In this document: in pieces, positions 1,636 to 62,837 of the stretch | How the letters are laid out: each line of letters starts with the position of its first letter | How positions within the stretch are numbered: position 1 is the first letter of the stretch | Assembly (NCBI GenBank): GCA_949152475.1 | Contig: OX424561.1 | Coordinates: 9,548,001 to 9,612,000, forward strand | Direction: 5' to 3' | Source of the DNA: Terebella lapidaria | Lineage: Eukaryota > Annelida > Polychaeta > Terebellida > Terebellidae | DNA length: 64,000 bases | Notes under the pieces: generated by a model | Databases searched by the model: none | What the model was told of the DNA's origin: nothing | The model's input: the letters and a program-made list of their open reading frames with translations, nothing else | Position numbers and translations under genes: made by a program

Positions 1636-1642
1636 TATAAAA
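1636..1642 (+). promoter_or_regulatory. TATA box of the CUB/mucin gene
   Basis: TATAAAA lies about 30 bp upstream of a plausible start in the TCATCAT stretch near 1664-1670. It is followed by a short leader with a strong splice donor at 1722 (AAAAG|GTAAGT) and then by the signal-peptide exon. The position relative to a spliced leader makes this a convincing core promoter. The exact start site is inferred. Confidence 0.65.
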
Positions 1643-1666
1643 CCGAGCCGGTTCTGGTGTCCATCA

Positions 1667-1721
1667 TCATAATCGCACTACAGTCAACATATGGTGCCAG
1701 TTTGGAAAACACTAACAAAAG
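1667..1721 (+). other. Leader exon of the CUB/mucin gene
   Basis: It runs from the inferred start about 30 bp after the TATA box to the donor AAAAG|GTAAGT. An ATG at 1691 is open to the donor and, through the splice to 1995, is in frame with the ATG at 2000. The exon may therefore code for a 12-residue N-terminal extension instead of being purely untranslated. The ATG at 2000 has the better context (G at -3 and +4). Confidence 0.55.
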
Positions 1722-1999
1722 GTAAGTCCATATTGTCGCGTGTAGGTAGGTAAGATCACTAAAGCAGAGGACAAGTACGTTTGCCTAAATATCGTCTACG
1801 ATCCGGTATGACAGTTGAGACATTCCCTCATCCAATGTGAGCGTTTTCATGGCAAAACTCGAAGTCGAAATGACCTGTCAGGATGTGGAACCACTAACTT
1901 TGATTGTGTAAGAAAACTCCACATACATACATGATGCCTGTGACTTGGTCGTGTATTTGAGTGTTAATTCCCTACCCTGTTGATATTTCATTAGGAGCT

Positions 2000-2064
2000 A
2001 TGGCAGGACGTCTAGCGCTTCTTGCCGCACTTCTGGTGGTCTGTTTAGGCCCCAGTCTCACCGT
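2000..2064 (+). CDS. Exon: signal peptide
   Basis: It reads MAGRLALLAALLVVCLGPSL and ends in phase 2 at ACCGT|GTAAGT. The exon itself opens at 1995 after the acceptor TTTCATTAG. It has a short basic n-region, a Leu/Ala-rich core and a small-residue c-region, which is a classic eukaryotic secretion signal. Confidence 0.85.
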
Positions 2065-5000
2065 GTAAGTATCGGAATATATCTCATCACAAGTTCGGGA
2101 CCAGGCGATTCCACGTCCTAATATCATTCCATCAATGAAAACATACCATATAATAAACCATCTGGTATCATTTCAATCCTATCCGTCTTGGGCCCAAGTT
2201 CTTAACATAACATTCTTAAATCTGAACAGAGGCCTCGTAGCAGCTACACGCTTACGTCCCTACCATTGTGGTGTATGATTGAAAGATTTATTTCACACTA
2301 CATTTTCAAGCAATCACCCTGTTTGTTTCTATTTCAAGTGGAGGCCGACCGAGGGACACTGTACAGCTGCAGGTATGTCAATGTGTAATTAGGATGCATA
2401 TATCAGAGGCACTACTAGCATCCATTTATTCGAAAGCGACTGAAAGATTCATTTTTTCCTGAAAGCAACCCACTTCATTAGTTCCGCTATGCCGAATGGC
2501 AGCGGAGCTTTAGCGATACCGTGTTGTCCGGCGTCCGTCCGTCTGTTGAGTAAAATTTTGCACAAAAATACCTAAAAATATTTCAAGAGGGAGGTATTTT
2601 AATTTTTTTCATTTTAATTTTTTTTTTCCAAAATGGCCATTTTCTCAAAAACTGTCTAATCAGTTTTGAGATTTTCATTTCAAAAGATTCCCGTAATATA
2701 CCTCTGTGCTGTATGCAAGTTTCGATGCCCTCGAATCGCTGGTCTTCGTATGGCGGCCTTTTGAGATTCCGGCGGGTGGACGCAAAAAATGCTTTTGTCC
2801 CAACTCAAGTCACTATTCGTTTTGATCCATTTCCAGCAAAAAATTATTTTTTGGCCTTTGAAAAATAGTTCGGACTCACCAGCTTTGCGGAGTAAACTCA
2901 TAGAACACTTCAATATAGAGCCTAAATATTGGCACATTCAAATGGGAAATAATAATGTTGCGGTTTGAATGGTGACCTTGAATTTGACCTTCAATGACCT
3001 TGGAAGGTCAAAACGACCTTTATTTGTCAAAAGAAACAATGATTTTTGCCATTTTCTCAAAATCTTTTCAGACAATTTTTCTCAAGATAATGCATAAGAT
3101 TCGCCCTATGTACCTGTGTGATGTGTATAAGTTTTGTTGCCGTTGAATCGACGGTCTGCGTGAGGCGGCCATTTTGATTTTTTGACGGGTAGGCGAAAAC
3201 AAAGTTTTGTCCTAAATCAAGTCACTATTCGTTTTGAGCCATTTCCTGGTAAAAAAAATTCTTTTCCTTTGAAAACTTCAGCACTTTTTTCCTTCATAAA
3301 GGGAACTGCCACAACTGTACTCATAGAATACTTGAAGGTAGAGCTTAGATATTGGCACTTTTGAATGGGGAGTCATATGTGAGGATGTGTGTAGTGACCT
3401 CGGATTTGACCTTCGATGACCTCTAAATGGTCAAAACGACTTTTTGACGAAAAACACTCAATTTTGGAAATTGGCAGCCATTTTCTCGAAAACTGTCTTA
3501 TCAGTTTTGAGAATGTTGTTTCAAAAGATGCCCCTTATGTATCTATTTTTGTGATGTTTCCTTGCCCTTCAACTGCCGGTCTCTGTGTGGCGGTCATTTC
3601 GATTTTTCGAAGGCTTGGCGAAATAAGTTTGTTGTCCAAACAAAGCCACTTTTCATTTTGAGCCATTTCCAGCAAAAAAAAAAATGTTTTTTGGAAAAAA
3701 ACACATTTGCATCAAAGATCAAAACGGCCACTTTCTGTCAAAACATTTCGATCAAATTGGGAATTTCAATATTACTACTTTTGAACTTTTGCAGCGGAGC
3801 TCTCAAGGCCGTGCACCTGTCTTTCAGGCACGGTTGCGAATGGGTCTCCGTGGATTGAATTTTCACGGGAGAAAACGTAATTTTATACCTGATGCTTCTT
3901 TTGGGTTATTAGTAAACTTGACTGATCGTCCCTAGTTCTCTAACATCCCCTAACAAATGCTAGTTGTAGGTTACGACCAAGTACTTGTACCTGCTCGTTT
4001 GACATACTTAGAAAAGTCTGAGCAGTCGTAGACATGACCTTTCGCGGCTCAGGCACCATACCGCTTAGTATAAGATTTTGATGGTATCAATAAAAACATG
4101 TCATCAGATATTTTCGGAATAGAATCCGATCCCGACCACTCATTTACATCTGAAACCACACTGGTGTCATTGACAGTGTGTAATATAATTATTGCTTCTG
4201 TACAACAATTATTCTGAGAAAGCTGTGTTCCATGGACTTTGTGGATGCAAACTGAAATCACCGAGAACTTTTCAGGTGAATTCCTGATTGCTTAAAATCA
4301 ATCAGGTCAGCATATAAATTTGGCCGTGAGTCAGCACTTATCAGGGATGTTCCAGGAATAGTTACAGTCAGATAGTTGGCCAGGGCTTCCATAGCTGTAG
4401 CTTGTATATCCCGTCTGACAGGTGCGCGATCTCGAGAGTTTGGTAGAGGGTCTGCTGGCGGAGAGTGACCAGGAATTCGATGAGAATGGTTCCGGGATTG
4501 ACGATGGGAGTGAAGCGGATTCAGATCTAGGTTAGCTTCTGAGTTGTCTCGGCTACCTTCTGAGTTAAATTCGTGGGATATATTATTCCTAGTTCAAATG
4601 TAATTCCTATAGTTAAATTCCGAAATGTCAATAGATTTTGATAGCAAAGTAGAACCAAATACTCTGTATATTTGAAAATATACAGTATGACATAAATGGC
4701 TGCTGATTCGATCTGCTTTGAAGTGTTTTCATCATTGTGTTTCTTTCATAAATTAAAAAAAATTTTTTTCCCTGATTATCACAATGGAAAGGAAATTGCT
4801 TGCGATCGCCCGATGACCGAATATTAGGTTTGGAATATTTTGGCAGATCGGCGTCAGGCAAACACAACCACCACGGCACCACCTCCAACCACTACCACAT
4901 CTACAGCAGGTGGTGAAGGGAGCAGTGGCAGTGTGGACAGCGTCAGTGACAGTGACAGCAGCTTGAGTGACAGCAGCTCCTTCGGTAATCTTCGAGTAAT

Positions 5001-8000
5001 CTGAGTATCTGATTGTCGAAGAAAGTAGAACCGTGGGGCAAATAGAAAATAGAACCTTGTGAGATAGTTCCAGTCCATGTGTTGCATGCTAGTCAATAAT
5101 TGAAGTGTTTTCATCATTGTTTGTCTTTCATAACTAAAAGAAAACAATTTCCCCTGACTATCACAATGGAAAGGAAATGCTTGAGATCTCCCGATCACCG
5201 AATATTAGGTTTGGTATTTTTAGGTTACCGGACCTAGTATGGTCAGGTAGCCTATTGGCATGGCGTTGTGTCCGTTGTCTGTCATCGTCGGCGTCAGCGT
5301 CGTTCGTCCACATTTTTATCCTTGAAGTTTACGGGTGAATCTTCCTGAAGTTTTGCACCAAAATGCCTAAAACATTTTTGAAAAGGGGGTATTTTTTTTT
5401 GTTTTCGCATTGTTTTTTCAAAATGGCAGGCGTTTTTCGATGAAAAACGGTTGATTTATGAATTTGGCGGCCGTTTTCTCAAAAACTGTTGAGACAGTTT
5501 TGAGATTTTTGTTTCAAAAGATTGCCCTCATATAACTCTGTGACGGGTATAAGTTTCGTTGCCCCTGAATCGCCGGTCTGCGTGTAGCGGCCATTTTCAA
5601 TTTTCGGAAGGGTCCCAATGGGACTTTTTCATGTTAAATTCTCCTATGCTTTATAATGGGACACATTATTCCTAATATCTCACTCAATATTGAGATCAGA
5701 GACTAGGAATCAATTGTGGACACATAGGAAATGATATATGCTGATCATTGTCATGACCTTGAATTTGACCATTGACCTCATTTTAAAGGTCAGAGCACAA
5801 AATGGCTAATATCTTGCTTATTATCCACTTTACAGCTTGGGACTAAATTGTGGACGTACAGGAAATGATGTATGCCGAATATTTTCATGACCTTGAATTT
5901 GACCTTTGACCTCATGTTCAAGGTCAGGCAAAAAATGGCTAATATCTCGCTTATTATTGAATATTGTGCTGACCTTGGATTTTACCTTTGACCTCATTTT
6001 CAAGGTCAAAGAACGGAATGGCTAATATCTCGCTTATTATCGACCTTACAACTTGTGAATCAATTGTGGACAAATGGGAAATGATATACATGTATGCTGA
6101 ATATTGTCATGACCTCGAATTTGAACGTTGACCTCATTTTCAAGGTCAGAGCACAGAATGGCTAATATCTCGCTTATTATCAATTTTACAGATAAGGAAT
6201 CAACTTTGGACATATAGGAAATGATATATGCTGAATATTGTCGTGACCTTGAAATGACCTTTGACCTCGTTTTCAATGTCTTACAGGACAACTTGGCTAA
6301 TATCTTGTTTATTATCAAATTAGCAACTTAGGATTCTATTGTGGACATACAGCAGATGATATGTGCTGAATATTCTGGTGACCTTTAATTTGAATTTTGA
6401 TTTCATTTTCAAGGTCATAGGATATAATGACTTATATCTCTCTTATTACAGAATTTACAGCTTAGTAATCAATTGTGAACGTATAGGAAATCATATATGC
6501 TGAATACTCTCGTGACTTTAGATCTGACCGTGACCTTATTTTCAAGGCCACGGGACAAAATAGCTATTATATATTGTCTGTTCACCTATCTTATCCCTTG
6601 GGCCAATTTTTTGGCAGATCGGCGTCAGGCAAACACAACCACAACGGCACCACCTCCAACCACCACCACATCTACAGCAGGTGGGGAAGGGAGCAGTGGC
6701 AGTGTGGACAGCGTCAGTGACAGTGACAGCAGCTTGAGTGACAGCAGCTCCTTCGGTATACTTCTAGTAATCTGAGTATCTGATTGTCAAAGAAAGTAGA
6801 ACCGTGGGGCAATAGAAAATAGAACCTTGTGAGATAGTTCCAGTCCATGTGTTGCATGCTAGTCAATAATTGAAGTGTTTTCATCATTGTGTGTCTTTCA
6901 TAACTAAAAGAAAACAATTTCCCCTGACTATCACAATGGAAAGGAAATGCTTGAGATCTCCCGATCACCGAATATTAGGTTTGGTATTTTTAGGTTACCG
7001 ACCTAGTATGGTCAGGTAACCTATTGGCATTGCGTTGTGTCCGTTGTCTGACATCGTCGGCGTCAGCGTCGTTCGTCCACATTTTTATCCTTGAAGTTTA
7101 CGGGTGAATCTTCCTGAAGTTTTGCACCAAAATGCCTAAATATTTTTTTGAAAAGGGGGGATTTTTTTTGTTTTCGCATTTTTTTTTTCAAAATGGCAGC
7201 GGCTTTTCGATAGAAAACGGTTGATTTATGAATTTGGCGGCCGTTTTCTCAAAAACTGTTGAGACAGTTTTGAGATTTTTGTTTCAAAAGATTGCCCTCA
7301 TATAACTCTGTGTTGGGTATAAGTTTCGTTGCCCCTGAATCGCCGGTCTGCGTGTAGCGGCCATTTTCATTTTCCGGACGGGTCCCAATGGGACTTTTTC
7401 ATGTTAAATTCTCCTATGCTTTATAATGGGACACATTATTCCTAATATCTCACTCAATATTGAGATCAGAGACTAGGAATCAATTGTGGACACATAGGAA
7501 ATGATATATGCTGATCATTGTCATGACCTTGAGTTTGACCATTGACCTCATTTTAAAGGTCAGAGCACAAAATGGCTAATATCTTGCTTATTATCCACTT
7601 TACAGCTTGGGACTAAATTGTGGACGTATGGGAATGATGTATGCCGAATATTTTCATGACCTTGAATTTGACCTTTGACCTCATGTTCAAGCTCAGGCAC
7701 AAAATGGCTAATATCTCGCGTATTATTGACTTTAAAGCTTAGGAATCAATTGTGGACCTATAGGAAATGGAATATGCCGAATATTCTAATGACCTTGAAT
7801 TTGACCTCATTTTCAAGGTCAGAGTACAAAATGGCTAACATCTCGCTCATTGTCGACTTTACAGCTTAGGAATCAATTGTGGACATATAGAAAATGATAT
7901 AGTCTGTATATTGTGCTGACCTTGGATTTTACCTTTGACCTCATTTTCAAGGTCAAAGAACGGAATGGCTAATATCTCGCTTATTATCGACCTTACAACT

Positions 8001-11000
8001 TGTGAATCAATTGTGGACAAATGGGAAATGATATACATGTATGCTGAATATTGTCATGACCTCGAATTTGAACGGTGACCTCATTTTCAAGGTCAGAGCA
8101 CAGAATGGCTAATATCTCGCTTATTATCAATTGTACAGATAAGGAATCAATTTAGGACATATAGGAAATGATATATGCTGAATATTGTCGTGACCTTGAA
8201 ATGACCTTTGACCTCGTTTTCAATGTCTTACAGGACAACTTGGCTAATATCTTGTTTATTATCAAATTAGCAACTTAGGATTCTATTGTGGACATACAGC
8301 AGATGATATGTGCTGAATATTCTGGTGACCTTTAATTTGATTTTTGATTTCATTTTCAAGGTCATAGGATATAATGACTTATATCTCTCTTATTACTGAA
8401 TTTACAGCTTAGTAATCAATTGTGAACGTATGGGAAATCATATATGCTTAATACTCTCGTGACTTTAGATCTGACCGTGACCTTATTTTCAAGGCCACGG
8501 GACAAAATAGCTATTATATATTGTCCGCTCACCTATCTTATCCCTTGGGCTAATTTTTTGGCAGATCGGCGTCAGGCAAACACAACCACCACGGCACCAC
8601 CTCCAACCACCACCACATCTACAGCAGGTGGGGAAGGGAGCAGTGGCAGTGTGGACAGCGTCAGTGACAGTGACAGCAGCTTGAGTGACAGCAGCTCCTT
8701 TGGTATACTTCTAGTAGTCTGAGTATCTGATTGTCAAAGAAAGTAGAACCGTGGGGCAATAGAAAATAGAACCTTGTGAGATAGTTCCAGTCCATGTGTT
8801 GCATGCTAGTCAATAATTGAAGTGTTTTATCATTGTGTGTCTTTCATAACTGAAAAAAAAAACACAATTTCCCTTGATTATCACAATGGAAAGGAAATAC
8901 TTGAGATCTCCCGATCACCGAATATTAGGTTTGGTATTTTTAGGTTACCGGACCTATGGTCCGATAACCTGTTGGCATGGCGTTGAGTCCGTTGTCTGCC
9001 ATCGTCGGCGTCAGCGTCGTCCATCCACATTTTTATCTTTTTTTAAGTTTACGGGTGAATCTTTCTGAAGTTTTGCACAAAAATGCCTAAAAATGTTTAG
9101 AAAAAGGGGTACTTTTTTTTTGTTTTCGCATTTTTTTTTCAGAATGGCAGCCATTTTTCGACGAAAAATGGTTGATTTCTGACTTTGGCGGCCATTTTCT
9201 CGAAGACTGTTCAGACAGTTTTGAGATTTTTGTTTCAAAAGATTGCCCTCATATAACTCTGTGACGGGTATAAGTTTCGTTGCCCCTGAATCGCCGGTCT
9301 GCGTGTAGCGGCCATTTTCATTTTCCGGACGGGTCCCAATGGAACTTTTTAACCATAATGGCCTAATGGCCATTTTTGGGGGTTCATGAGTTTCCCTGTC
9401 ATTTTTTTTTCTCTCACTACGTATGCCTGATATGACTTTCTGTCCCCGGACTATGAGATTGGATAACAGACCCTGTTTTGTTTGCTCGGAATACTTAATA
9501 CTGGGTATTGGTTCCACGTCTACTTTCATGTTAAATTCTCCTATGCTTTATAATGGGACATATTATGCCTAATATCTCACTTAATATTGAGATCAGAGAC
9601 TAGGAATCAATTGTGGACACATAGGAAATAATATGTGCTGATCATTGTCATGACCTTGAATTTGACCTTTGACCTCATTTTCAAGGTCAGAGCACAAAAT
9701 GGCTAATATCTTGCTTATTATTGACTTTACAGCTTAGAGTCAATTGTGCACATATGGGAAATGATACAGTCCGAACATTCTGATGACCGTGAATTTGATC
9801 TTTGACCTCATTCTCAAGGTCAAAGCACAAAATGCCTAATATCTCACTTATTATCCACTTTACAGCTTGGAACTAAATTGTGGATGTATAGAAAATGATG
9901 TATGCCGAATATTTTCATGACCTTGAATTTGACCTTTGACCTCATGTTTAAGGTGAGGCACAAAATGGCTAATATATCGCTTATTATTGACTTCAAAGCT
10001 TTGGAATCAATTGTGGACATATAGGAAATGACATATGCCGAATATTCTGATGACCTTGAATTTGATATTTGACCTCATTTTCAAGGTCAGAGCACAAAAC
10101 GGCTAACATCTCGCTCATCATCGACTATACAGCTTAGAAATCAATTGTGGACATATAGGAGATGATATAGTCGGAATATTGTGCTGACCTTGGATTTTAC
10201 CTTCGACCTCATTTTCAAGGTCAAAGAACGGAATTGCTAATATCTCGTTTATTATCGACTTTACAACTTGTGAATCAATTGTGGACAGATAGAAAATGAT
10301 ATACATGTATGCTGAATATTGTCATGACCTTGAATTTGAACTTTGACTTCATTTTCAAGGTCAGCGCACAGAATGGCTAATATCTCGCTTATTATCAACT
10401 TTACAGATTAGGAATCAATTTTGGACATATAGGAAATGATATATGCTGAATATTGTCGTGACCTTGAATTGACCTTTGACTTCATTTTCAATGTCTTACA
10501 AGACAACTTGGCTAATATCTTGTTTATTATCAAATTAGCAACTTAGGATTCTATTGTGGACATATAGCAGATGATATGTGCTGAATATTCTGGTGACCTT
10601 TAATTTGAATTTTGATTTCATTTTCAAGGTCATAGGATATAATGACTTATATCTCTCTTATTACAGAATTTACAGCTTAGTAATCAATTGTGAACGTATA
10701 GGAAATCATATATGCTGAATACTCTCGTGACTTTAGATCTGACCGTGACCTTATTTTCAAGGCCACGGGACAAAATAGCTATTATATATTGTCTGTTCAC
10801 CTATCTTATCCCTTGGGCTAATTTTTTGGCAGATCGGCGTCAGGCAAACACAACCACAACGGCACCACCTCCAACCACCACCACATCTACAGCAGGTGGG
10901 GAAGGGAGCAGTGGCAGTGTGGACAGCGTCAGTGACAGTGACAGCAGCTTGAGTGACAGCAGCTCCTTCGGTATACTTCTAGTAATCTGAGTATCTGATT

Positions 11001-14000
11001 GTCAAAGAAAGTAGAACCGTGGGGCAATAGAAAATAGAACCTTGTGAGATAGTTCCAGTCCATGTGTTGCATGCTAGTCAATAATTGAAGTGTTTTCATC
11101 ATTGTGTGTCTTTCATAACTAAAAGAAAACAATTTCCCCTGACTATCACAATGGAAAGGAAATGCTTGAGATCTCCCGATCACCGAATATTAGGTTTGGT
11201 ATTTTTAGGTTACCGACCTAGTATGGTCAGGTAACCTATTGGCATTGCGTTGTGTCCGTTGTCTGACATCGTCGGCGTCAGCGTCGTTCGTCCACATTTT
11301 TATCCTTGAAGTTTACGGGTGAATCTTCCTGAAGTTTTGCACCAAAATGCCTAAATATTTTTTGAAAAGGGGGGATTTTTTTTGTTTTCGCATTTTTTTT
11401 TTTCAAAATGACAGCCGTTTTTCGATAGAAAACGGTTGATTTATGAATTTGGCGGCCGTTTTCTCAAAAACTGTTGAGACAGTTTTGAGATTTTTGTTTC
11501 AAAAGATTGCCCTCATATAACTCTGTGTTGGGTATAAGTTTCGTTGCCCCTGAATCGCCGGTCTGCGTGTAGCGGCCATTTTCATTTTCCGGACGGGTCC
11601 CAATGGGACTTTTTCATGTTAAATTCTCCTATGCTTTATAATGGGACACATTATTCCTAATATCTCACTCAATATTGAGATCAGAGACTAGGAATCAATT
11701 GTGGACACATAGGAAATGATATATGCTGATCATTGTCATGACCTTGAGTTTGACCATTGACCTCATTTTAAAGGTCAGAGCACAAAATGGCTAATATCTT
11801 GCTTATTATCCACTTTACAGCTTGGGACTAAATTGTGGACGTATGGGAATGATGTATACCGAATATTTTCATGACCTTGAATTTGACCTTTGACCTCATG
11901 TTCAAGCTCAGGCACAAAATGGCTAATATCTCGCGTATTATTGACTTTAAAGCTTAGGAATCAATTGTGGACCTATAGGAAATGGAATATGCCGAATATT
12001 CTAATGACCTTGAATTTGACCTCATTTTCAAGGTCAGAGTACAAAATGGCTAACATCTCGCTCATTGTCGACTTTACAGCTTAGGAATCAATTGTGGACA
12101 TATAGAAAATGATATAGTCTGTATATTGTGCTGACCTTGGATTTTACCTTTGACCTCATTTTCAAGGTCAAAGAACGGAATGGCTAATATCTCGCTTATT
12201 ATCGACCTTACAACTTGTGAATCAATTGTGGACAAATGGGAAATGATATATATGTATGCTGAATATTGTCATGACCTCGAATTTGAACGGTGACCTCATT
12301 TTCAAGGTCAGAGCACAGAATGGCTAATATCTCGCTTATTATCAATTTTACAGATAAGGAATCAATTTAGGACATATAGGAAATGATATATGCTGAATAT
12401 TGTCGTGACCTTGAAATGACCTTTGACCTCGTTTTCAATGTCTTACAGGACAACTTGGCTAATATCTTGTTTATTATCAAATTAGCAACTTAGGATTCTA
12501 TTGTGGACATACAGCAGATGATATGTGCTGAATATTCTGGTGACCTTTAATTTGACTTTTGATTTCATTTTCAAGGTCATAGGATATAATGACTTATATC
12601 TCTCTTATTACTGAATTTACAGCTTAGTAATCAATTGTGAACGTATGGGAAATCATATATGCTTAATACTCTCGTGACTTTAGATCTGACCGTGACCTTA
12701 TTTTCAAGGCCACGGGACAAAATAGCTATTATATATTGTCCGTTCACCTATCTTATCCCTTGGGCTAATTTTTTGGCAGATCGGCGTCAGGCAAACACAA
12801 CCACCACGGCACCACCTCCAACCACCACCACATCTACAGCAGGTGGGGAAGGGAGCAGTGGCAGTGTGGACAGCGTCAGTGACAGTGACAGCAGCTTGAG
12901 TGACAGCAGCTCCTTCGGTATACTTCTAGTAGTCTGAGTATCTGATTGTCAAAGAAAGTAGAACCGTGGGGCAATAGAAAATAGAACCTTGTGAGATAGT
13001 TCCAGTCCATGTGTTGCATGCTAGTCAATAATTGAAGTGTTTTATCATTGTGTGTCTTTCATAACTGAAAAAAAAAACACAATTTCCCTTGATTATCACA
13101 ATGGAAAGGAAATACTTGAGATCTCCCGATCACCGAATATTAGGTTTGGTATTTTTAGGTTACCGGACCTATGGTCCGATAACCTGTTGGCATGGCGTTG
13201 AGTCCGTTGTCTGCCATCGTCGGCGTCAGCGTCGTCCATCCACATTTTTATCTTTGAAGTTTACGGGTGAATCTTTCTGAAGTTTTGCACAAAAATGCCT
13301 AAAAATGTTTAGAAAAAGGGGTACTTTTTTTTTGTTTTCGCATTTTTTTTTCAGAATGGCAGCCATTTTTCGACGAAAAATGGTTGATTTCTGACTTTGG
13401 CGGCCATTTTCTCGAAGACTGTTCAGACAGTTTTGAGATTTTTGTTTCAAAACATTGCCCTCATATAACTCTGTGACGGGTATAAGTTTCGTTGCCCCTG
13501 AATCGCCGGTCTGCGTGTAGCGGCCATTTTCATTTTCCGGACGGGTCCCAATGGAACTTTTTAACCATAATGGCCTAATGGCCATTTTTGGGGGTTCATG
13601 AGTTTCCCTGTCATTTTTTTTTTCTCTCACTACGTATGCCTGATATGACTTTCTGTCCCCGGACTATGAGATTGGATAACAGACCCTGTTTTGTTTGCTC
13701 GGAATACTTAATACTTGGTATTGGTTCCACGTCTACTTTCATGTTAAATTCTCCTATGCTTTATAATGGGACATATTATGCCTAATATCTCACTTAATAT
13801 TGAGATCAGAGACTAGGAATCAATTGTGGACACATAGGAAATAATATGTGCTGATCATTGTCATGACCTTGAATTTGACCTTTGACCTCATTTTCAAGGT
13901 CAGAGCACAAAATGGCTAATATCTTGCTTATTATTGACTTTTCGCATTTTTTTTAGCACGAAATGGCTAATATCTCGCTTATTATCCACTTTACAGCTTG

Positions 14001-17000
14001 GGACTAAATTGTGGACGTATAGGAAATGATGTATGCCGAATCTTTTCATGACCTTGAATTTGACCTTTGACCTCATGTTCAAGGTCAGGCACAAAATGGC
14101 TAATATCTCGCTTATTATTGACTTTAAAGCTTAGGAATCAATTGTCGACATATAGGAAATGGCATATGCCGAATATTCTGATGACCTTGAATTTGATATT
14201 TGACCTCATTTTCAAGGTCAGAGCACAAAACGGCTAACATCTCGCTCATCATCGACTATACAGCTTAGAAATCAATTGTGGACATATAGGAGATGATATA
14301 GTCGGAATATTGTGCTGACCTTGGATTTTACCTTTGACCTCATTTTCAAGGTCAAAGAACGGAATTGCTAATATCTCGTTTATTATCGACTTTACAACTT
14401 GTGAATCAATTGTGGACAGATAGAAAATGATATACATGTATGCTGAATATTGTCATGACCTTGAATTTGAACTTTGACCTCATTTTCAAGGTCAGCGCAC
14501 AGAATGGCTAATATCTCGCTTATTATCAACTTTACAGATTAGGAATCAATTTTGGACATATAGGAAATGATATATGCTGAATATTGTCGTGACCTTGAAT
14601 TGACCTTTGACTTCATTTTCAATGTCTTACAAGACAACTTGGCTAATATCTTGTTTATTATCAAATTTGCAACTTAGGATTCTATTGTGGACATACAGCA
14701 AATGATATGTGCTGAATATTCTGGTGACCTTTAATTTGACTTTTGATTTCATTTTCAAGGTCATAGGATATAATGACTTATATATCTCCTATCACTGAAC
14801 TTACAGCTTAGTAATCAATTGTGAACGTATAGGAAATCATATATGCTGAATACTCTCCTGACTTTAGATCTGACCGTGACCTTATTTTCAAGGCCACGGG
14901 ACAAAATAGCTATTATATATTGTCCGTTCACCTATCTTATCCCTTGGGCTAATTTTTTGGCAGATCGGCGTCAGGCAAACACAACCACCACGGCACCACC
15001 TCCAACCACCACCACATCTACAGCAGGTGGTGAAGGGAGCAGTGGCAGTGTGGACAGCGTCAGTGACAGTGACAGCAGCTTGAGTGACAGCAGCTCCTTC
15101 GGTAAACTTCTAGTAATCTGAGTATCTGATTGTCGAAGAAAGTAGAACCGTGGGGCAAATAGAAAATAGAACCTTGTGAGATAGTTCCAGTCCATGTGTT
15201 GCATGCTAGTCAATAATTGAAGTGTTTTCATCATTGTGTGTCTTTCATAACTAAAAGAAAACAATTTCCCCTGACTATCACAATGGAAATGAAATGCTTG
15301 AGATCTCCCGATCACCGAATATTAGGTTTGGTATTTTTAGGTTACCGGACCTATGGTCCGGTAACCTATTGGCATGGCATTGTGTCCGTTGTCTGTAATC
15401 GTCGGCGTCAGCGTCGTTCGTCCACATTTTTATCCTTGAAGTTTACGGGTGAATCTTTCTGAAGTTTTGCACAAAAAATGCCTAAAAATGTTTTTGAAAA
15501 GGGGTATTTTTTTTCTGTTTTCGCATTTTTTTTCAAAATGGCAGCCATTTTTCGATGAAAAACGGTTGATTTCTGACTTTGGCGGCCATTTTCTCAAATA
15601 CAATTCAGACAGATTTGAAATCTTTGTTTAAAAAAATTGCCCTCATATAACTCTGTGACGGGTATAAGTTTCATTGCCCCTGAATCGCCGGTCTGCGTGT
15701 AGCGGCCATTTTCATTTTCCGAACGGGTCCCAATGGGACTTTTTCATGTTAAATTCTCCTATGCTTTATAATGGCTCACATTAATACCAATATGTCACTC
15801 AATATTGAGATCAGAGACTAGGAATCAATTGTGGACACATAGGAAATGATATATGCTGATCATTGTCATGACCTTGAATTTGACCATTGACCTCATTTTC
15901 AAGGTCAGAGTACAAAATGGCTAATATCTTGCTTATTATTGACTTTACAGCTTAGGAATCAATCGTTTACATATAGGAAATGATATAGTCGAACATTCTG
16001 ATGACCGTGAATTTGACCTTTGACCTCATTCTCAAGGTCAAAGCACGAAATGGCTAATATCTCGCTTATTATCCACTTTACAGCTTGGGACTAAATTGTG
16101 GACGTATAGGAAATGATGTATGCCGAATATTTTCATGACCTTGAATTTGACCTTTGACCTCATGTTCAAGGTCAGGCACAAAATGGCTAATATCTCGCTT
16201 ATTATTGACTTTGAAGCTTAGGAATCAATTGTCGACATATAGGAAATGGCATATGCCGAATATTCTGATGACCTTGAATTTGATATTTGACCTCATTTTC
16301 AAGGTCAGAGCACCAAAATGGCTAACATCTCGCTCATTATCGACTTTACAGCTTAGGAATCAATTGTGGACATATAGGAAATGATATAGTCCGAATATTG
16401 TGCTGACCTTGGATTTGACCTTTGACCTCATTTTCAAGGTCAAAGAACGGAATGGCTAATATCTCGCTTATTATCGACCTTACAACTTGTGAATCAATTG
16501 TGGACAGATAGGAAATGATATACATGTATGCTGAATATTGTCATGACCTCGAATTTAAACTTTGACCTCATTTTCAAGGTCAGAGCACAGAATGGCTAAT
16601 ATCTCGCTTATTATCAACTTTGCAGATAAGGAATCAATTTTGGACCTATAGGAAATGACATATGCTGAATGTTGTCGTGACCTTGAATTGACCTTTGAGC
16701 TCATTTTCAATGTCTTACAGGACAACTTGGCTAATATCTTGCTTATTATCAAATTTGCAACTTAGGATTCTATTGTGGACATACAGCAAATGATATGTGC
16801 TGGATATTCTGGTGACCTTCAATTTGACTTTTGATTTCATTTTCAAGGTCATAGGATATAATGAAATATATCTCTCTTATTACTGAATTTACAGCTTAGT
16901 AATCAATTGTGAACGTATAGGAAATCATATATGCTGAATACTCTCGTGACTTCAGATCTGACCGTGACCTTATTTTCGAGGCCACGGGACAAAATAGCTA

Positions 17001-20000
17001 TTATATATTGTCCGTTCACCTATCTTATCCCTTGGGCTAATTTTTTGGCAGATCGGCGTCAGGCAAACACAACCACCACGGCACCACCTCCAACCACCAC
17101 CACATCTACAGCAGGTGGTGAAGGGAGCAGTGGCAGTGTGGACAGCGTCAGTGACAGTGACAGCAGCTTGAGTGACAGCAGCTTGAGTGACAGCAGCTCC
17201 TTCTGTAAACTTATAGTAATCTGAGTATCTGATTGTCAAAGAAAGTAGAACTGTTGGGCAAATAGAAAATAGAACCCTGTCAGATAGTTCCAGTCCATGT
17301 GTCTAGTCCATGTGTCGCAGTCCATGCTAGTCAATAATTCATTACAAAAATATGTCAACAGGCAATAATTGGTTTCATTCACTGGGATACCGTGGTATTG
17401 AATATTTTGAAGAGTATTCTTGTTATTATGTTGAACTGATCAGCTGTCCGTTTGTTCTATTCTGGCAGACCGACGTCAGGTCAACACAACAACGACACCC
17501 CCGACAACCACCACCACCACCACCGCCAACCCCAATGATACGACAACGACACCCCCGACAACCGCCACCACCACCACCAACCCCAATGATACGACAACGA
17601 CACCCCCGACAACCACGACCACCACAACCAACCCCAACGATACCACTACTACAACCAGCACTATTGCTCCCCCGGTGGACGGTAAGCTAAGAACACTACC
17701 AAACCACCACTTCCCCAGCCTATAGCAAACAACACAACAAGTGCCACTTTGTCGTGTTATCCATCTCGACATCTCCAGCCTGTAGCAACAAATACAAGAA
17801 CAGGAACTTAGTCCAGGCCTTATATGGCCCTAATGGGGTTAGATAGGGAAAAAAAGCAACACTACATATCATTTGTGATTTGATTACAGAAATATATGCT
17901 GAGCAACATATCAAAAGTCTAAAGTTCTCAAAATATGGAAAGTTAGACAAAATCGCAATTTTTTGGACCCCCCGTTTGAGTCATTTTCCGCCCCATTTCG
18001 CCATGTCAGAATTTAGTCTACTGTAAGGATTTGGGGTAGACATTTGGATGCCAAAGCTGAATTTGTGCACAGTGACTCTGGAGATCATATCTCTATCCCA
18101 CAAAAAGTCCCCATCCAATCCCATGAGGGGTTTTCCCAAAAATCCAAGAGAGCCGCCATTCATATGCAAAATACCTTAAAGTTGAACTAGCAGGTTATCT
18201 ACTGCATCTACTTTGGTGATTTTAGTGTCTATTCCCATGTTTTCTGACCCAAGGAATCTGATGGTGATATTGCTGAGTTTCTGTGGCTGTTGGTTGTTTC
18301 AAAATCCGGAATTGCTGCTAGAAAAACCTGGAAAATTCGAAAAAAAAACACGTTTCTAGCCATATGTCAGCTTCTATATCAGATGAAAGCAAAATGCTGG
18401 TGTCTACCCCTATATTATCTGACCCAAGATTTACAGTGGTGATAAACGCCATGTCTCTGTAACTGTTGGTTGCCTCAGAAATAAATATGGCAATAATTTT
18501 ACAATAATTTTTTATTCACAAAGAGGCTTCGTTCAATCACAGCTGTGTGAATGGTGCTTGCTCAACACAGCAAAGAGCTTTGATAATCCCTTGTCACATT
18601 CACAAACAGGAAGAGTAGCTTATCCAGTTGTTGTGACCAGAGAGATGTTGATGCTAATTTATGCGTGGCAAAGCATGTCAAAAATTTTGGTGGAGCACTT
18701 CTAAAGCAGAAAATTGCATGACAGGAACTCTGCCACAACGGATCCGAGCTCATCCACATCCACAACTCTCGCCCACAATGAAACCATAGGGCCTAAACAA
18801 GTGATTCTGTTGAGATCCCTTCAACAACCCGCGTTTTCCTGTTTTGGCATGGCATATATTTTGAGTCCAATGATGTCGGAGGGGAACTACGAGCTTGAAA
18901 TTTTCTAAATGTCGGCTCGGATCGTGCTGCTGTTCCAAACGGACTGTTCAAATTACTACATATGATTGACAACATGACGTGATATTTAAAAAAACCAGTT
19001 TGTTGTGAAAGGTAACATGACAAGACGTGAAGGAATAACATGTTAGGTGGATGATGAATGTACTTGGGTATTGGTTCCCTGTTTTTTTAGCACAGGATGC
19101 CAGCATGAGGCAGTGGCAATGTTTGTCCAGTGGGTGTCGGGGGCATTGAAATGGAGCGACTTGTCGCCACTGTTGAGTAGAAGAGGTTCAAAAAGAGGCT
19201 TGGTGAAGGCATTCTCTGATCATGAAGCCCAAACTGTTAAGGAGCCCAACTGCCAAAGGCAGTATTTCCTCCAAGATCTCAGAAAAGCTGGTCGAGCATA
19301 TATATTGTAGCAGCTGCCAGGCAATCCAGGGTAGAATCTATCAAGACTACAGACTGTAGGGGCGTTGGTCTTCCCCTGGCTGAGGCATGGCCACAGACAC
19401 CGAGTAAAGGGAGGATGAGTGATGCAACACCTCCTTGGGAGGGCCAAAACGACTTGGCAAGAAAGTCCTTCTGGGAAGGTTCAAAGAGCTTGGAAAGCTT
19501 CGACCGCTTGGCATTGTCTCCCTTGTTCTTGAGAGCTCACTGCCAACGGCGCTTAAAAGCTTGGTGAACACTCCGGCTCAGAGGCAACGCTGATGAGCTC
19601 CAACTGGAGGTATGAGAAGGCCGCAGGCAACCTGGTCCACCTGGTCCTGGTCATACCAACGAGGAAAGCAGATAGGGTGGAGCCAGCGACAGCTTGATCG
19701 GTCGCTGAGGCTGGCCTGGTGTAACCAAGCACAGGAAAGGCAATTGACACGTAAAAAATACTCTGTACCAGCGTAGCCGCGAGGAACTGCTCCCTTGGGA
19801 CGAGCCCGGGCTGGAGAGCCTGGCAGTGTCAAAGCGGGGATGACAGCCAGCTGCACGTGGCGTCCTGTTTTAAACACGCGGGAAGCAGGAAGATACCAGG
19901 CGGGGATGACAGCCAGCTGCACGTGGCGTCCTGTTTTAAACCTGCGGGAAGCAGGAAGATACCAGGCGGAGACAGCTCTTGTGTACGCTGACATGCAATA

Positions 20001-22452
20001 ATCGATGGGTCATTTGAGTTTTCATCTACTGCCTCATAGAATTGAACATCTTCTGGGGCTGGAACGTTAGACAAGCGCCGAGGCTCAGATCCAGCTGCCT
20101 GAGATCTTTGGGGTAGAACCTGTACCTGTAAGGGTATTGTCGTACCTGACGGAAATCCCACAGAAATGGCCTTAGTAGCGAGTCACACGAACATGGAAGG
20201 GAGCGTTCCTGAAGCCAAGGAGGTCCCAAAGGAGAGGCCTAAATCCCACGTTGCAATGGCGGCAGCGAAAACAAGCCTCGAGGTTGACACATCGTCTGGA
20301 AGAGCGGACATTCGACTCAAAGGTACAAGAATGCAGTAGAAGATATGGAGAATCACCGCTGACTGCATCGGCATTGATTGTCCCAATGGAAACCAGGTTC
20401 CTATCAGGACCCAGCCCCGGGTCCGGACCCAGACAGGGCTGGCCAACCGGCATGAAAAAAATTCCGACTCGGTGTTCGAGTTCTCATTGGAGGCCGTGCC
20501 CCAAAAGGGATGATCCTGGTGATTGCAACATTCCCTGATGGTAAAACGCAGCCAGAAAGACACGGATTACAAGAATACTAGTATGTTATAAGGAGTGCTG
20601 TTCCAATGAGTAGGAGAATGGGAGAAGTTGACACTGTTCTGCCATTTGGTGACTTTGTTGGGGGATTAGAATGGATAGCGACAAATAGATAAATTTATAT
20701 TCCTAGACTAAATCCATGGATGAATTTTACAAAATAAGTGTACGTGGGCAAATCCTAGTGATACTAAAGTATCAAAGTCAAAGCCATGTGAACATCACAG
20801 ACACTTATCCAGCTCAGTGTGAGATCGGGTGCTCCGTAAGAGTGAGGTCATTCCTTAATCTTTCGCATGCGGGGTTTCGCTATGTGGGACGCATATTTTA
20901 AGTAGGCTGTATGGGTACCGTCTAATATGGAAGTAATGTATAGTGGATACATATGGAGTGAAATCGAGATAAACACAATGTCCTATTGCAACAAACATAC
21001 GTGATCGTGGCGTTTCGGGAGTGAAAAACTAGAAAAGCTTCACCCCATGTTTAGAAATGTTATCTCTTTAGACTTTTATTATGTTATTTAGATGCCTTTA
21101 AGGTAAACAATTCCACATGATTTGTTAGTGTTGCAATTTTTTCCCCGTGAAACACTATATACCCTAGACTAACCCTGTCGTGCCAGTTTCCACTGGAAGT
21201 GTCATACCGAGAGATACCATCTAATGAAACATCCAAAGAAACGTATAGTCAAACAGCCCTCTGCATATCTTCTGCATGTACATTCCCGGAATGCTGTATA
21301 TGTCCATTTGCACGCACACCACACGGAGACCCATATCTGTCCAGAATGTTCAAGACGCATATAGTCAAACAGCCCTCTGCATATCTCCTGCATGTACACC
21401 TCACGATGTGCCATATATATCCAGAGTGTGGAACCTACCATGATCCCGTCAAAATCGATGGGGACACTGTGCTGACATACCCCAGCACTGGCAACTATCC
21501 CGACAACACCCACTGTGTCTGGTTCTTCCACGATGAACGCCCTGAAGTAGGTTCCATGTTTACATCGTGTATTAGACTTGCTACTTGTTTATATTACGAC
21601 GGTAACCTATCCAAGTAACCCATCATTCCATATAAAATAAACAATTACATTCGTTCTGTGTATGAGGCGATTCATAAGAATTATCACTAACCGCCTATGA
21701 CTCACAGTACGCCGGAGGAGTGAGAATCGTCCTGGAGAGTATTGATCTCGAGTTATCCACTCTTTGCTACCATGATTACCTGTTCCTGATCAATGGCAGA
21801 TGTCTGTCCTATCTCCACTATAGACATAGCTCCCGCAGATGGAGCAGCCGCCGGAGGTAGGCATGGCCAGTTTGTCACACCTTTGACCAAAGCAACAGTC
21901 AAACACCCATACTCAGGCCCCAATCGGTGGCTCACACGAGAAGCATGCTTAACCAGAATTCTAAATTCCCAGAAATCATGATTAGAACAAATTGATAGTT
22001 AATACTTGGACTAGTTGCAGTACCAATGAATGAATAGACGCAGTTTGTGGAGTATTAAAACACATTTCATATGAACTACGGGCCTTTAATATTTGAGAAT
22101 GTACATAATATAGATTGGAGTTACATGCCAATTGAGAGGTCTTCATAGGACTGGTGTGACTGGCGAAATATATCTCCAACTCTTGTAAAAGGCTCTTACG
22201 AAACGCTGAACATACATCCATGTGTTTTCCGTTTTCCGGATTGAATGGTTTTTTTTGGTCTAATTCCCAAGGAATGGGCGAAGGCGTCGCAATCGAGTGC
22301 GTGTGTTCAATGAATCCCCGAAGCTTGCCAAGTTTTGTGGGACAAGTGCTGACAAGACCTTCGAGAGTGACAACAACAACATGCTGATTGTTTTCCGGTC
22401 TGACTCTTCCGGGACTGGAACTGGCTTCACGGCTAGATTTGAGCCCAAGTGA
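2000..22452 (+). CDS. Secreted CUB-domain protein with amplified Ser/Thr-rich repeat exons
   Basis: Fourteen coding exons join without a phase conflict: 2000-2064, 2339-2372, 4422-4530, 4847-4984, 6618-6755, 8565-8702, 10833-10970, 12780-12917, 14964-15101, 17052-17204, 17469-17681, 21425-21546, 21708-21856, 22272-22452. They total 1,854 nt, or 617 residues. Order: signal peptide (1 to ~20, hydrophobic LALLAALLVVCL), acidic linker (34-69), seven repeats starting RRQANTTTT (71-396), Thr/Pro/Asn mucin segment with NPNDTTTT repeats (398-467), one CUB domain (469-617). The CUB has the canonical cysteines at 469, 498, 528 and 580. There is no membrane anchor, so it should be secreted and heavily O-glycosylated. 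I do not recognise a named orthologue. The exon joins are my prediction; splice sites, phases and the CUB motif support each other. Number of repeats spliced in may vary. Confidence 0.85.
2339..2372 (+). CDS. Exon: 34-nt mini-exon (GGRPRDTVQLQ)
   Basis: It has acceptor TATTTCAAG and donor CAG|GTATGT. It enters in phase 2 and leaves in phase 0. The phase match on both sides and the good donor support it despite its size. Confidence 0.65.
2486..3830 (+). repeat. Modular repeat, about three ~415-bp units, in intron 2
   Basis: The block opens with a small hairpin (TCCGCT...AGCGGA). The phrase GCCCTTGAATCG...CGGTCT...GCGGCCATTTT recurs near 2733, 3143 and 3563. Each module also holds AAAACTGTCTxATCAGTTTTGAGA, CCATTTCCAGCAAAAAA and a GACCTTGAATTTGACCTTC stretch. 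Similar modules lie at 31.2-31.9 kb (inverted) and 57.3-58.4 kb. Open frames inside are fortuitous. Confidence 0.75.
4422..4530 (+). CDS. Exon: acidic linker
   Basis: It has acceptor CGTCTGACAG and donor CTAG|GTTAGC, phase 0 in and phase 1 out. The reading is VRDLESLVEGLLAESDQEFD followed by a Gly/Ser/Asp tail. It is strongly acidic and low in complexity. It supplies the phase change needed between the mini-exon and the phase 1-1 repeat exons. Confidence 0.75.
4847..4984 (+). CDS. Repeat exon copy 1
   Basis: The exon is 138 nt, phase 1-1, with acceptor TATTTTGGCAG and donor TTCG|GTAATC. It encodes RRQANTTTTAPPPTTTTSTA, then GGEGSSGSVDSVSDSDSSLS, then DSSSF. It holds an NTT N-glycosylation sequon and a Ser/Asp-rich acidic tail. 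It is preceded by a shorter, different intron from the other copies, so it is likely the oldest border of the array. Confidence 0.85.
5211..5640 (+). repeat. GGTTACC hairpin-capped module, first of six in the array
   Basis: The hairpin lies at 5223-5252 and the module follows: GTCATCGTCGGCGTCAGCGT, TTTTGCACCAAAATGCCTAAA, a T-rich run, then GTTGCCCCTGAATCGCCGGT and GCGGCCATTTT. Equivalent hairpins lie at 6993, 8943, 11208, 13158 and 15339. Confidence 0.75.
6618..6755 (+). CDS. Repeat exon copy 2
   Basis: The exon is 138 nt, phase 1-1, with acceptor TTTTTTGGCAG and donor TTCG|GTATAC. The protein is identical to copy 1. It is identical at DNA level to copy 4, exactly 4,215 bp downstream. Confidence 0.85.
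8565..8702 (+). CDS. Repeat exon copy 3
   Basis: The exon is 138 nt, phase 1-1, with donor TTTG|GTATAC. The penultimate codon is TTT where the others have TTC, a silent change. Its counterpart in the duplicated block is copy 5, 4,215 bp away. Confidence 0.85.
10833..10970 (+). CDS. Repeat exon copy 4
   Basis: The exon is 138 nt, phase 1-1, with acceptor TTTTTTGGCAG and donor TTCG|GTATAC. Its sequence equals copy 2, including the silent ACA codon in the Thr run. The two copies belong to one recently duplicated block. Confidence 0.85.
12780..12917 (+). CDS. Repeat exon copy 5
   Basis: The exon is 138 nt, phase 1-1, with donor TTCG|GTATAC. It differs from copy 3 only at the silent TTC/TTT codon. 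The protein is unchanged. Confidence 0.85.
14964..15101 (+). CDS. Repeat exon copy 6
   Basis: The exon is 138 nt, phase 1-1, with donor TTCG|GTAAAC. It carries the silent GGT GGT pair seen in copies 1 and 7 but not in copies 2-5, so copies 1, 6 and 7 form a second sequence class. Confidence 0.85.
15339..15367. repeat. Perfect 29-nt hairpin terminus
   Basis: Two 13-nt arms (AGGTTACCGGACC) flank a 3-nt loop. This is the best-preserved copy in the gene 1 array. Near-perfect copies also lie at 35775, 35958 and 36093 on the opposite side of inverted arrays. Confidence 0.85.
17052..17204 (+). CDS. Repeat exon copy 7, with a 15-nt internal duplication
   Basis: The exon is 153 nt, phase 1-1. The SLSDS coding segment is repeated once in frame, lengthening the acidic Ser/Asp tail by five residues. 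The last base is T instead of G (TTCT|GTAAAC), so the codon across the junction to the mucin exon becomes Tyr instead of Asp. It is the last copy before the mucin exon. Confidence 0.85.
17469..17681 (+). CDS. Exon: Thr-rich mucin segment
   Basis: The exon is 213 nt, phase 1-1, with acceptor TTCTGGCAG and donor GGACG|GTAAGC. It starts RRQVNTTTTPP, clearly homologous to the start of the repeat exons (RRQANTTTTAPP). It then expands into three NPNDTTTT units separated by Pro/Thr runs and ends STIAPPVD. The NDT triplets are N-glycosylation sequons and the Thr runs are typical O-glycosylation substrate. It is probably a diverged older relative of the amplified exon. Confidence 0.85.
19834..19965. 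repeat. 66-bp tandem duplication
   Basis: Two adjacent copies of a 66-bp unit start GCGGGGATGACAGCC. They differ at only a few bases. Confidence 0.85.
21245..21424. repeat. ~116-bp tandem duplication ending at the CUB acceptor
   Basis: ATAGTCAAACAGCCCTCTGC at 21245 recurs at 21361, followed in both by CATGTACA and a pyrimidine/TATA-rich tail. The second copy ends in the splice acceptor used for the first CUB exon. The first copy carries a related but weaker tail. Confidence 0.7.
21425..21546 (+). CDS. Exon: CUB domain, first part
   Basis: It has acceptor TATATCCAG and donor CTGAA|GTAGGT, phase 1 in and 0 out. It opens with ECGTYHDP and holds YPSTGNYPDNTHCVWFF, the hallmark Pro-x-Asn-Tyr-Pro...Cys-x-Trp segment of CUB domains. 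Cys469 and Cys498 should form the first disulfide. Confidence 0.9.
21708..21856 (+). CDS. Exon: CUB domain, middle part with basic insert
   Basis: It has acceptor GACTCACAG and donor CGGAG|GTAGGC, phase 0 in and 2 out. It starts YAGGVRIVLESIDLELSTLC and continues YHDYLFLING, the conserved beta strands and Cys528. It then departs from the usual CUB pattern into an Arg/Ser-rich stretch that continues into the next exon. Confidence 0.8.
22272..22452 (+). CDS. Exon: CUB domain, last part and stop
   Basis: It has acceptor TTCCCAAG, enters in phase 2 and ends at TGA. After an Arg-rich start it reads VFNESPKLAKFCGTSADK, then SDNNNMLIVFRSDSSGTGTG and FTARFEPK, a textbook CUB C-terminus with Cys580 and the final GF-x-A-x-F strand. 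No clear AATAAA signal lies just downstream. Confidence 0.88.
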
Positions 22453-22598
22453 TCACTACAGATCATAGGTAACCATGGTAACGGGCCGCTAGCTGCATGC
22501 TCACTGAGCAATGTGTGGAATAAGTAACAACAGTTCAGCAACTACAGTAGATATCACTCCGTGAGCAATATTTGCTTTAACCAAGCTCAATATCAAAG

Positions 22599-62738: not shown

Positions 62739-62837
62739 GACATTGTTGATGATTTCCCAAGTTTTCCTGATGTTATTTTTGTTTTCCGTAAATAGATCTT
62801 CATAATAAGTATTTTTGCGTATTCGAGTTAGTTTGTT

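What the first reader, a model, noticed from the sequence alone, without database searches (positions are those of the whole stretch)
4847..17204. One phase 1-1 exon amplified seven times inside a secreted CUB protein gene
The sequence shows seven copies of a 138-153-nt exon with intact acceptors and donors. Each can be added or lost without a frame change, spliced between an acidic linker and a mucin/CUB C-terminus. The predicted 617-residue protein grows by 46 residues per copy. I do not know a described family with this layout.
Basis: partly seen in the sequence, partly recalled or inferred. Interest (0 to 1): 0.85.

Follow-up and report, generated by a model that had tools for sequence, protein, structure and literature searches.

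The report
Worm mucin-CUB gene with seven-exon array
In a marine worm, a gene for what looks like a secreted, sugar-coatable protein carries one small exon copied seven times in a row, so the protein could lengthen or shorten in fixed steps; the arrangement is real, but a similar one is already known from a parasitic flatworm.

Summary
Seven exons (six of 138 nt, one of 153 nt), all phase 1-1, lie in one complete gene model: signal peptide, acidic exon, array, Thr-rich exon, three-exon CUB domain. Six copies encode identical 46-residue peptides. The genome matches Terebella lapidaria, chromosome 7.

The array arose by tandem duplication of an exon plus a 1.6-2.1 kb intron carrying a dispersed repeat. 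Units 2/4 and 3/5 are near-twins and the edges are more diverged, as unequal crossing-over predicts; gene conversion may contribute.

At least two paralogues exist here, each with one mucin exon where this gene has array plus Thr exon. The Thr exon is a diverged eighth relative.

'Intact donors' needs qualifying. Terminal donors are canonical but weak, and every copy has a better-scoring in-frame internal donor at +63, so 21-residue modules are possible.

The layout is not unprecedented: Schistosoma SmPoMuc mucins amplify exon 2 in ~1 kb units, and Argiope silk genes show alternating introns. New member of a known kind. No transcript was available to me.

The parts
1636..1642 (+). TATAAAA, promoter-like element upstream of the first exon
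   Evidence: sequence; promoter function inferred
1660..1721 (+). first exon (start approximate, inferred), with an in-frame upstream ATG at 1691; donor GTAAGT
1995..2064 (+). signal-peptide exon, ATG at 2000 (MAGRLALLAALLVVCLGPSLT...)
2339..2372 (+). short exon, phase 2 to 0
4422..4530 (+). acidic linker exon, phase 0 to 1 (VRDLESLVEGLLAESDQEFDENGSGIDDGSEADSDL); both paralogues show an acidic exon that reads with the same phases
   Evidence: paralogues read by eye from the sequence
4847..4984 (+). repeat exon copy 1; the only copy without the dispersed repeat directly upstream (empty site)
6618..6755 (+). repeat exon copy 2 (unit near-identical to copy 4's unit)
8565..8702 (+). repeat exon copy 3 (unit close to copy 5's unit)
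10833..10970 (+). repeat exon copy 4
12780..12917 (+). repeat exon copy 5
14964..15101 (+). repeat exon copy 6
17052..17204 (+). repeat exon copy 7, with in-frame 15-nt duplication and split codon G to T (Asp to Tyr)
6681..6686 (+). example of the internal in-frame donor GTGGGG after exon base 63 (copy 2); same place in all copies (GTGGGG in 2-5, GTGGTG in 1, 6, 7)
   Evidence: use not shown
5222..6608 (+). dispersed repeat inserted just before the acceptor of copy 2 (borders approximate, in a T-run on the right); related insertions at the same place before copies 3-7
17469..17681 (+). Thr-rich mucin exon, phase 1-1, three 51-nt repeats; diverged relative of the repeat exon
21425..21546 (+). 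CUB exon 1
21708..21856 (+). CUB exon 2, ending in an Arg-rich insert
22272..22452 (+). CUB exon 3 to stop TGA
23066..23071 (+). AATAAA, possible poly(A) signal of a 3' untranslated exon from about 22987
   Evidence: inferred

Best explanation
This is a complete annelid gene for a secreted mucin-like protein capped by a C-terminal CUB domain. Its central bottlebrush grew by tandem duplication of one symmetric (1-1) exon together with its intron. Shown from sequence: the gene model; at least two paralogues that lack the array; a dispersed repeat just before the acceptor of copies 2-7 but not copy 1, so it was inserted early and amplified with the exon; and similar copies with near-twin alternating units and more diverged edges. 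Inferred: unequal crossing-over (perhaps with gene conversion) between the ~2 kb units adds or removes 46-residue modules without harming the frame. Each module adds one N-glycosylation sequon, a Thr/Pro stretch for O-glycans and an acidic Ser/Asp stretch (possible phosphoserine or glycosaminoglycan sites). The product is then a negatively charged mucus or tube-lining glycoprotein whose CUB domain, carrying an Arg-rich insert, anchors it. Splicing of each copy may choose between the weak terminal donor (46 residues) and an in-frame internal donor (21 residues, mucin part only).
For: Gene model, phases, six identical peptides. Pfam CUB on the window protein and on both paralogue CUBs. Paralogues: acidic exon 0-1, about 110-120 nt of intron, one Thr-rich exon 1-1, then CUB (hits; exons and phases read by eye). 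CUB searches returned these genes plus weaker hits on C16 and C14. The Thr exon aligns with copy 7 across the acceptor, score 55 against a maximum of 31 in 500 mononucleotide shuffles; ungapped, 34 of 55 bases agree, the next best place outside the copies 28. Over the 6 units, in columns without gaps, the exon varies at 4/138 against 157/1625 in the introns, Fisher one-sided P 0.0028. All 4 of those changes are third-position and synonymous (P 0.003 with equal rates, 0.014 if all were transitions). Unit pairs over 1763 shared columns: 2-4 differ at 8, 3-5 at 24, the other 13 pairs at 51-96. Edges: left flank (126-130 nt) 84.6-87.3% and right flank (98 nt) 91.8-93.9% identical to the internal introns, whose own pairs are 93.9-99.6%. 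Empty site before copy 1, filled before copies 2-7. Dispersed repeat: 3084 first-look candidates genome-wide, 40 scored. GC falls from 0.57-0.60 in both exon halves to 0.33-0.39 just after the terminal donor.
Against: No transcript, proteome or second individual was examined. The terminal donors are weak and the internal donors score better, so 138 nt may not be the main exon; a GT at +211/212, beyond an in-frame stop, also scores above the terminal donor in copies 1-6 (1.32), which also shows the limits of the matrix. The intron columns just after the exon vary at 6 of 136, not clearly more than the exon's 4 of 138, so the low exon variation may be partly regional. With copy 7 included a fifth change, in the split codon, is non-synonymous (P for 4 or more of 5 is 0.013-0.050). 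The near-twin units (8 and 24 of 1763 columns) could in principle be two alleles joined by the assembler. Homogenisation by gene conversion is not separated from unequal crossing-over; the SmPoMuc authors favoured conversion for their genes. Secretion, glycosylation, phosphorylation and a mucus or tube role are inference only.
Confidence: 0.72

Rival explanations
1. The functional repeat exon is only 63 nt (DRRQANTTTTAPPPTTTTSTA): the internal donor is the normal one, the acidic half is intron or rarely used, and the protein is 437 residues.
For: Internal donor CAG|GTGGGG scores 4.77 in copies 2-5 against -3.40 to -3.19 for their terminal donors, and 0.70 against -0.68, -0.42 and -3.95 in copies 1, 6, 7. 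63 nt keeps phase 1-1. The C9 paralogue's mucin exon and this gene's own Thr exon end shortly after a comparable TTTTTST stretch.
Against: GC stays at 0.57-0.60 through the acidic half and drops only after the terminal donor. In copy 2, the one tested, the acidic half is open only in the gene's frame. Copy 7's 15-nt duplication keeps the frame, and the two changes in this half among copies 1-6 are synonymous. The C7 paralogue's mucin exon ends TTTG|GTGAGT, like TT(C/T)G|GT here, and its acidic exon has a similarly weak GTATAT donor (read by eye).
Confidence: 0.2
2. Only some copies are spliced in: the array is a set of skippable cassette exons, and transcripts vary in length without DNA copy change.
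For: All copies are symmetric, and their terminal donors rank below the 6 other donors scored correctly. [quoted passage not shown]
Against: No transcript data here; splice scores alone do not show skipping.
Confidence: 0.35
3. Assembly artefact: part of the array (units 4-5) is the second allele of units 2-3 joined in tandem, so the true number is five copies.
For: Units 2-4 differ at 8 and 3-5 at 24 of 1763 columns, within a range that alleles could show.
Against: Assembly QV 60, PacBio reads, curation that removed 13 haplotypic duplications. Divergence between the two ~4.2-kb segments is uneven: 0-3 mismatches per 250 columns up to column 3000 and 2-12 beyond. Even then five copies remain.
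Confidence: 0.08
4. Non-functional segmental duplication: the array sits in a pseudogene or is never spliced in.
For: No expression evidence; the best frame of the neighbouring C7 paralogue's mucin exon shifts twice.
Against: The frame is open over all 14 coding exons of the model; six copies are identical in protein; 4 of 5 changes are synonymous.
Confidence: 0.05

Closest known systems
SmPoMuc polymorphic mucins, Schistosoma mansoni (PMC2576457, passages read)
   Same: Signal peptide, mucin-type repeats each encoded by one short exon, exon + ~1 kb units repeated in tandem (up to about 20), introns more than 93-94% identical, concerted evolution, multigene family
   Different: 27-bp exon and 9-residue repeat; 15 exons; the passages seen mention no CUB domain. 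Here: 138-nt exon, CUB end, introns of 1.6-2.1 kb with a dispersed repeat, and two paralogues without the array. Homology between the proteins was not tested.
Argiope MaSp2 dragline silk genes (PMC9779670, passages read)
   Same: Iterated highly similar introns between repeat exons; in some genes an alternating pattern with a two-exon two-intron unit, like units 2-3 / 4-5 here
   Different: Silk proteins, not a mucin/CUB layout
Coccidioides SOWgp (described within PMC2576457, passage read)
   Same: Repeated exons with associated introns nearly identical; higher conservation in the centre of the array, attributed to unequal crossing-over
   Different: Fungal surface protein; no similarity tested
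Human LPA kringle IV-2 array (recalled, not looked up)
   Same: In-frame exon + intron units repeated in tandem, protein length set by copy number
   Different: Folded kringle domains, two exons per unit, known population variation
Sabellariid cement proteins such as Pc-3 (PMC12621633, passages read)
   Same: Annelid tube-building secretion; Ser-rich acidic protein with phosphoserine
   Different: 'CUB' and 'mucin' occur 0 times in that paper's main text; only an analogy

Membership tests
CUB domain proteins (PF00431) | Score above the curated Pfam cut-off | tested here: met
   45.2 bits (full protein) and 50.9 bits (CUB region) against 21.4; paralogues 35.3 and 45.3. The best stretch covers only part of the profile, probably because of the insert.
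CUB domain proteins (PF00431) | Core cysteines and motifs (CG at the start, YP..NYPDN, C.W, KFC, GFT..FEP) | tested here: met
   Invariant columns in the three-way alignment, with a long charged insert before KFC in all three; best PDB sequence match procollagen C-endopeptidase enhancer 1, E 2.4e-11. Motif choice recalled.
Secreted mucins | Pro/Thr/Ser-rich tandem repeats behind a signal peptide | tested here: met
   Array of 327 residues: 94 S, 63 T, 21 P; Thr exon follows; hydrophobic N-terminus by eye, no signal-peptide program run
Secreted mucins | Dense O-glycosylation | not testable with these tools
   needs protein
Exon-array (SmPoMuc-like) mucin genes | One exon plus intron repeated in tandem, homogenised | tested here: met
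Exon-array (SmPoMuc-like) mucin genes | Variable repeat number between individuals or transcripts | not testable with these tools
   one assembly, no reads
SmPoMuc family by descent | Sequence homology of the proteins | not tested
   no eukaryotic protein collection searched; not claimed
Sabellariid-type cement proteins | Expression in cement glands, phosphoserine | not testable with these tools
   analogy only

The most novel reading that the evidence does not exclude
The array is a two-way length and charge dial. Genomic copy number sets how many modules exist, and in every module a pair of competing in-frame donors (+63 stronger inside, weak one at the end) lets splicing keep or drop the acidic Ser/Asp half. 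One gene would then make a near-neutral glycosylated brush or a highly acidic one opposite an Arg-rich CUB head, tuning the stickiness of worm mucus or tube lining. Copies 2-5 (strong internal donors, weak terminal ones) and copies 1, 6, 7 (weaker internal donors) would behave differently.
Probability: 0.22. Interest if true: 0.65.

Novelty: new member of a known kind. Interest (0 to 1): 0.42.

Why it matters
It is an exon-array mucin in an annelid, beside the flatworm-parasite (SmPoMuc) and silk (Argiope) examples found here. It comes with two paralogues lacking the array, so likely steps of its origin (mucin exon duplicated, dispersed repeat inserted, unit amplified) can be read from one genome. 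It gives a ready test of whether phase-symmetric exon arrays and nested in-frame donors let animals tune the length and charge of secreted mucus.

Tried and rejected
Chance or a simple minisatellite: rejected, since the exon starts are spaced 1.77-2.27 kb with splice frames kept in 7 of 7 copies and the exon DNA matched nowhere else. RNA families in 1-24000: none at gathering thresholds. Literature: 'Terebellidae, mucus, tube, glycoprotein' gave 0 papers; 'CUB domain, mucin, tube, polychaete' gave 3, of which only the tubeworm paper was opened (passages): its genes highly expressed only in the collar include mucin-like proteins and CUB domains, a lead only. Structure prediction was not run, because the CUB is spliced and the tool asks for proteins the DNA gives letter for letter. 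Ages of duplications were not given because I had no annelid rate. A globin search meant for species placement did not complete and was not repeated, since the genome paper settled the species.

In one search the first-exon donor was placed one base off and its score was dropped from the comparison; the right site is. One search (short peptides against the paralogue stretches at a very lax threshold) gave only noise and a cut output; nothing rests on it.
Full report
WHERE IT IS. The window is contig C7:9548001-9612000 of a 761.6-Mb assembly held in 438 contigs. C7 is 43,950,887 bases, C9 41,542,525, and C438 is a 15,973-base mitochondrial genome with the 22 tRNA genes found all on one strand, two adjacent trnM genes and an annelid-type order (the annelid ground pattern is recalled). 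The genome note for Terebella lapidaria (passages read, PMC11364976) gives chromosome 7 = 43.95 Mb, chromosome 9 = 41.54 Mb, mitochondrion = 15.97 kb and a total of 765.20 Mb in 576 scaffolds; the held copy is slightly smaller and has fewer pieces. Doubled trnM is reported in the terebellids Neoamphitrite affinis and Pista cristata but not Thelepus plagiostoma (passages read, PMC9629097). I therefore take the species as Terebella lapidaria, a terebellid worm (its tube or crevice life is recalled).

THE OBSERVATION. reproduces the model. Coding exons are 2000-2064, 2339-2372, 4422-4530, seven repeat exons (4847, 6618, 8565, 10833, 12780, 14964: 138 nt each; 17052: 153 nt), 17469-17681, 21425-21546, 21708-21856 and 22272-22452. 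All joints keep the frame, and the protein has 617 residues. Every repeat exon is 1-1, so any number of copies is tolerated. Six of seven encode the same 46 residues (DRRQANTTTTAPPPTTTTSTAGGEGSSGSVDSVSDSDSSLSDSSSF); copy 7 has five more. A first exon ending at 1721 follows a TATA-like element and has an in-frame ATG at 1691, which would add 12 residues. The exon DNA has 7 matches in the assembly, all in this array.

WHAT THE PROTEIN IS. Pfam finds CUB. By sequence the nearest solved chains are procollagen C-endopeptidase enhancer 1, cubilin, neuropilin-2, C1r and the MASP proteases (13 distinct sequences at E up to 0.001). The array is 327 residues with 94 Ser, 63 Thr, 36 Asp and 7 Glu against 14 Arg. 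Each module holds one N-glycosylation sequon and one Ser-Gly in an acidic context (GGEGSSGSVDS). Roles for these sites are inferred.

FAMILY. CUB searches of the genome find two clear relatives: a gene 2-4 kb upstream of the window on C7 and one on C9. One search also lists weaker matches on C16 (two) and C14; only the best candidates are scored, so the family size is a lower bound. Both relatives show an acidic exon (phase 0 to 1), about 110-120 nt of intron, one Thr-rich 1-1 exon with internal repeats, then CUB (hits, exons and phases read by eye); their signal-peptide exons were not located. The C9 mucin exon starts FGRQIEPNNTTTTPPTT; this gene's Thr exon starts YRRQVNTTTTPPTT and the repeat exon DRRQANTTTT. 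C9's mucin exon and this gene's Thr exon share a 51-nt internal period. The Thr exon and copy 7 align across the acceptor with score 55 against a shuffle maximum of 31 in 500; ungapped, 34 of 55 bases agree, against 28 for the next best place outside the copies. So the amplified exon most likely began as a duplicate of the family's mucin exon. All three CUB domains carry a long unalike charged insert before the KFC motif: Arg-rich in both C7 genes, Asp/His/Ser-rich on C9.

HOW THE ARRAY GREW. Introns between copies are 1633, 1809, 2130, 1809, 2046 and 1950 nt and 93.9-99.6% identical in pairs. Over 1763 columns shared by all six units, units 2 and 4 differ at 8 and units 3 and 5 at 24; the other 13 pairs differ at 51-96. 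So a two-unit block of about 4.2 kb was probably duplicated recently. Its first 3 kb show 0-3 mismatches per 250 columns and its last part 2-12, so later exchange or conversion is likely. Each of the six introns holds a dispersed repeat, with a 134-nt tandem inside, ending in the T-run just before the splice acceptor. A 200-nt piece of it has 3084 first-look candidates genome-wide, of which 40 were scored. Before copy 1 the site is empty (AATATTAGGTTTGGAATATTTTGGCAG); before copies 2-7 it is filled, and the repeat's T-rich end appears to supply the tract before the acceptor. The simplest order of events is an early exon duplication, insertion, then amplification of the filled unit. The array edges are more diverged: 84.6-87.3% on the left, 91.8-93.9% on the right. 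That gradient is what unequal crossing-over predicts (stated for SOWgp in PMC2576457); the same paper found no gradient in SmPoMuc and favoured gene conversion there.

IS THE EXON UNDER SELECTION? In the six units, over columns without gaps, 4 of 138 exon columns vary against 157 of 1625 intron columns (one-sided Fisher P 0.0028). All four are synonymous; the chance is 0.003 with equal rates and 0.014 if all changes were transitions. Against this, the 136 columns just after the exon vary at only 6, and copy 7 adds one non-synonymous change in the split codon, giving 4 of 5 synonymous, P 0.013-0.050. Columns within a homogenised array are not fully independent.

SPLICING DOUBT. By an approximate matrix the terminal donors (TCG|GTATAC and similar) rank at the 59th-89th percentile of 3542 GTs scored in the window, while the six other donors scored correctly rank at 95.6-99.9. 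At +63 every copy has CAG|GTGG(G/T)G, also in frame, scoring 4.77 in copies 2-5 and 0.70 in copies 1, 6, 7. Using it would give 21-residue modules and a 437-residue protein. A GT at +211/212, beyond an in-frame stop, also scores above the terminal donor in copies 1-6 (1.32), so the matrix alone cannot pick the true site. Arguments for the long exon: GC stays at 0.57-0.60 to the terminal donor and then falls to 0.33-0.39; the acidic half of copy 2 is open only in the gene's frame; the insertion in copy 7 is in frame; the C7 paralogue has a comparably weak GTATAT donor (by eye). Read-through of the terminal donor meets a stop after six further codons in 7 of 7 copies. The pairing of strong internal with weak terminal donors in copies 2-5 reflects shared descent and counts once.

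COMPARISON. SmPoMuc genes (passages read): exon 2 of 27 bp with flanking introns, ~1 kb units, introns more than 94% identical, up to about 20 copies, transcripts with 1-100 repeats. Argiope MaSp2 (passages read): iterated introns, some alternating, mean similarity 97.6%. The present gene works like these. It is not shown to be related to either by descent; its CUB cap and module are its own. Four searches that could have listed a described CUB-mucin exon array (all 3, 6 and 9 papers listed; 10 of 55 listed) showed none by title and abstract start, but the library holds only part of the literature.

VERDICT.

Noticed in passing
G000:C7 about 9543630-9546120 (just upstream of the window; locus L027): Paralogous mucin-CUB gene with one ~1.26-kb Thr/Pro mucin exon whose best reading frame changes twice (between about 9544170-9544260 and 9544350-9544440): sequence error, hidden intron or pseudogene.
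   Followed up: partly
G000:C9 about 14037400-14039710, minus strand (loci L028, L029): Second paralogue; its CUB insert is Asp/His/Ser-rich where the C7 genes are Arg-rich, a charge reversal at the same place.
   Followed up: partly
107-899, 32735-33390, 33924-35116, 60204-60648: Further 134-nt tandem arrays that look like the intron repeat, on both strands of the window (consensus compared by eye).
   Followed up: no
61722-63761, minus strand: Two adjacent frames of a non-LTR-type retrotransposon: endonuclease and reverse transcriptase (Pfam Exo_endo_phos and RVT_1).
   Followed up: no
43070-43663, minus strand: Reading frame of a methyltransferase-like gene (Methyltransf_31 E 4.2e-24).
   Followed up: no
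49633-51264: Tandem array of a 339-nt unit, 4.8 copies, 88% matches.
   Followed up: no
22590-22860: Long inverted repeat just downstream of the stop codon (read by eye), inside the presumed 3' untranslated intron.
   Followed up: no
G000:C417:44633-46450: A second COX1-like match in a 703-codon open stretch with TGA inside, outside the mitochondrial contig: nuclear copy or another organism's mitochondrial DNA.
   Followed up: no
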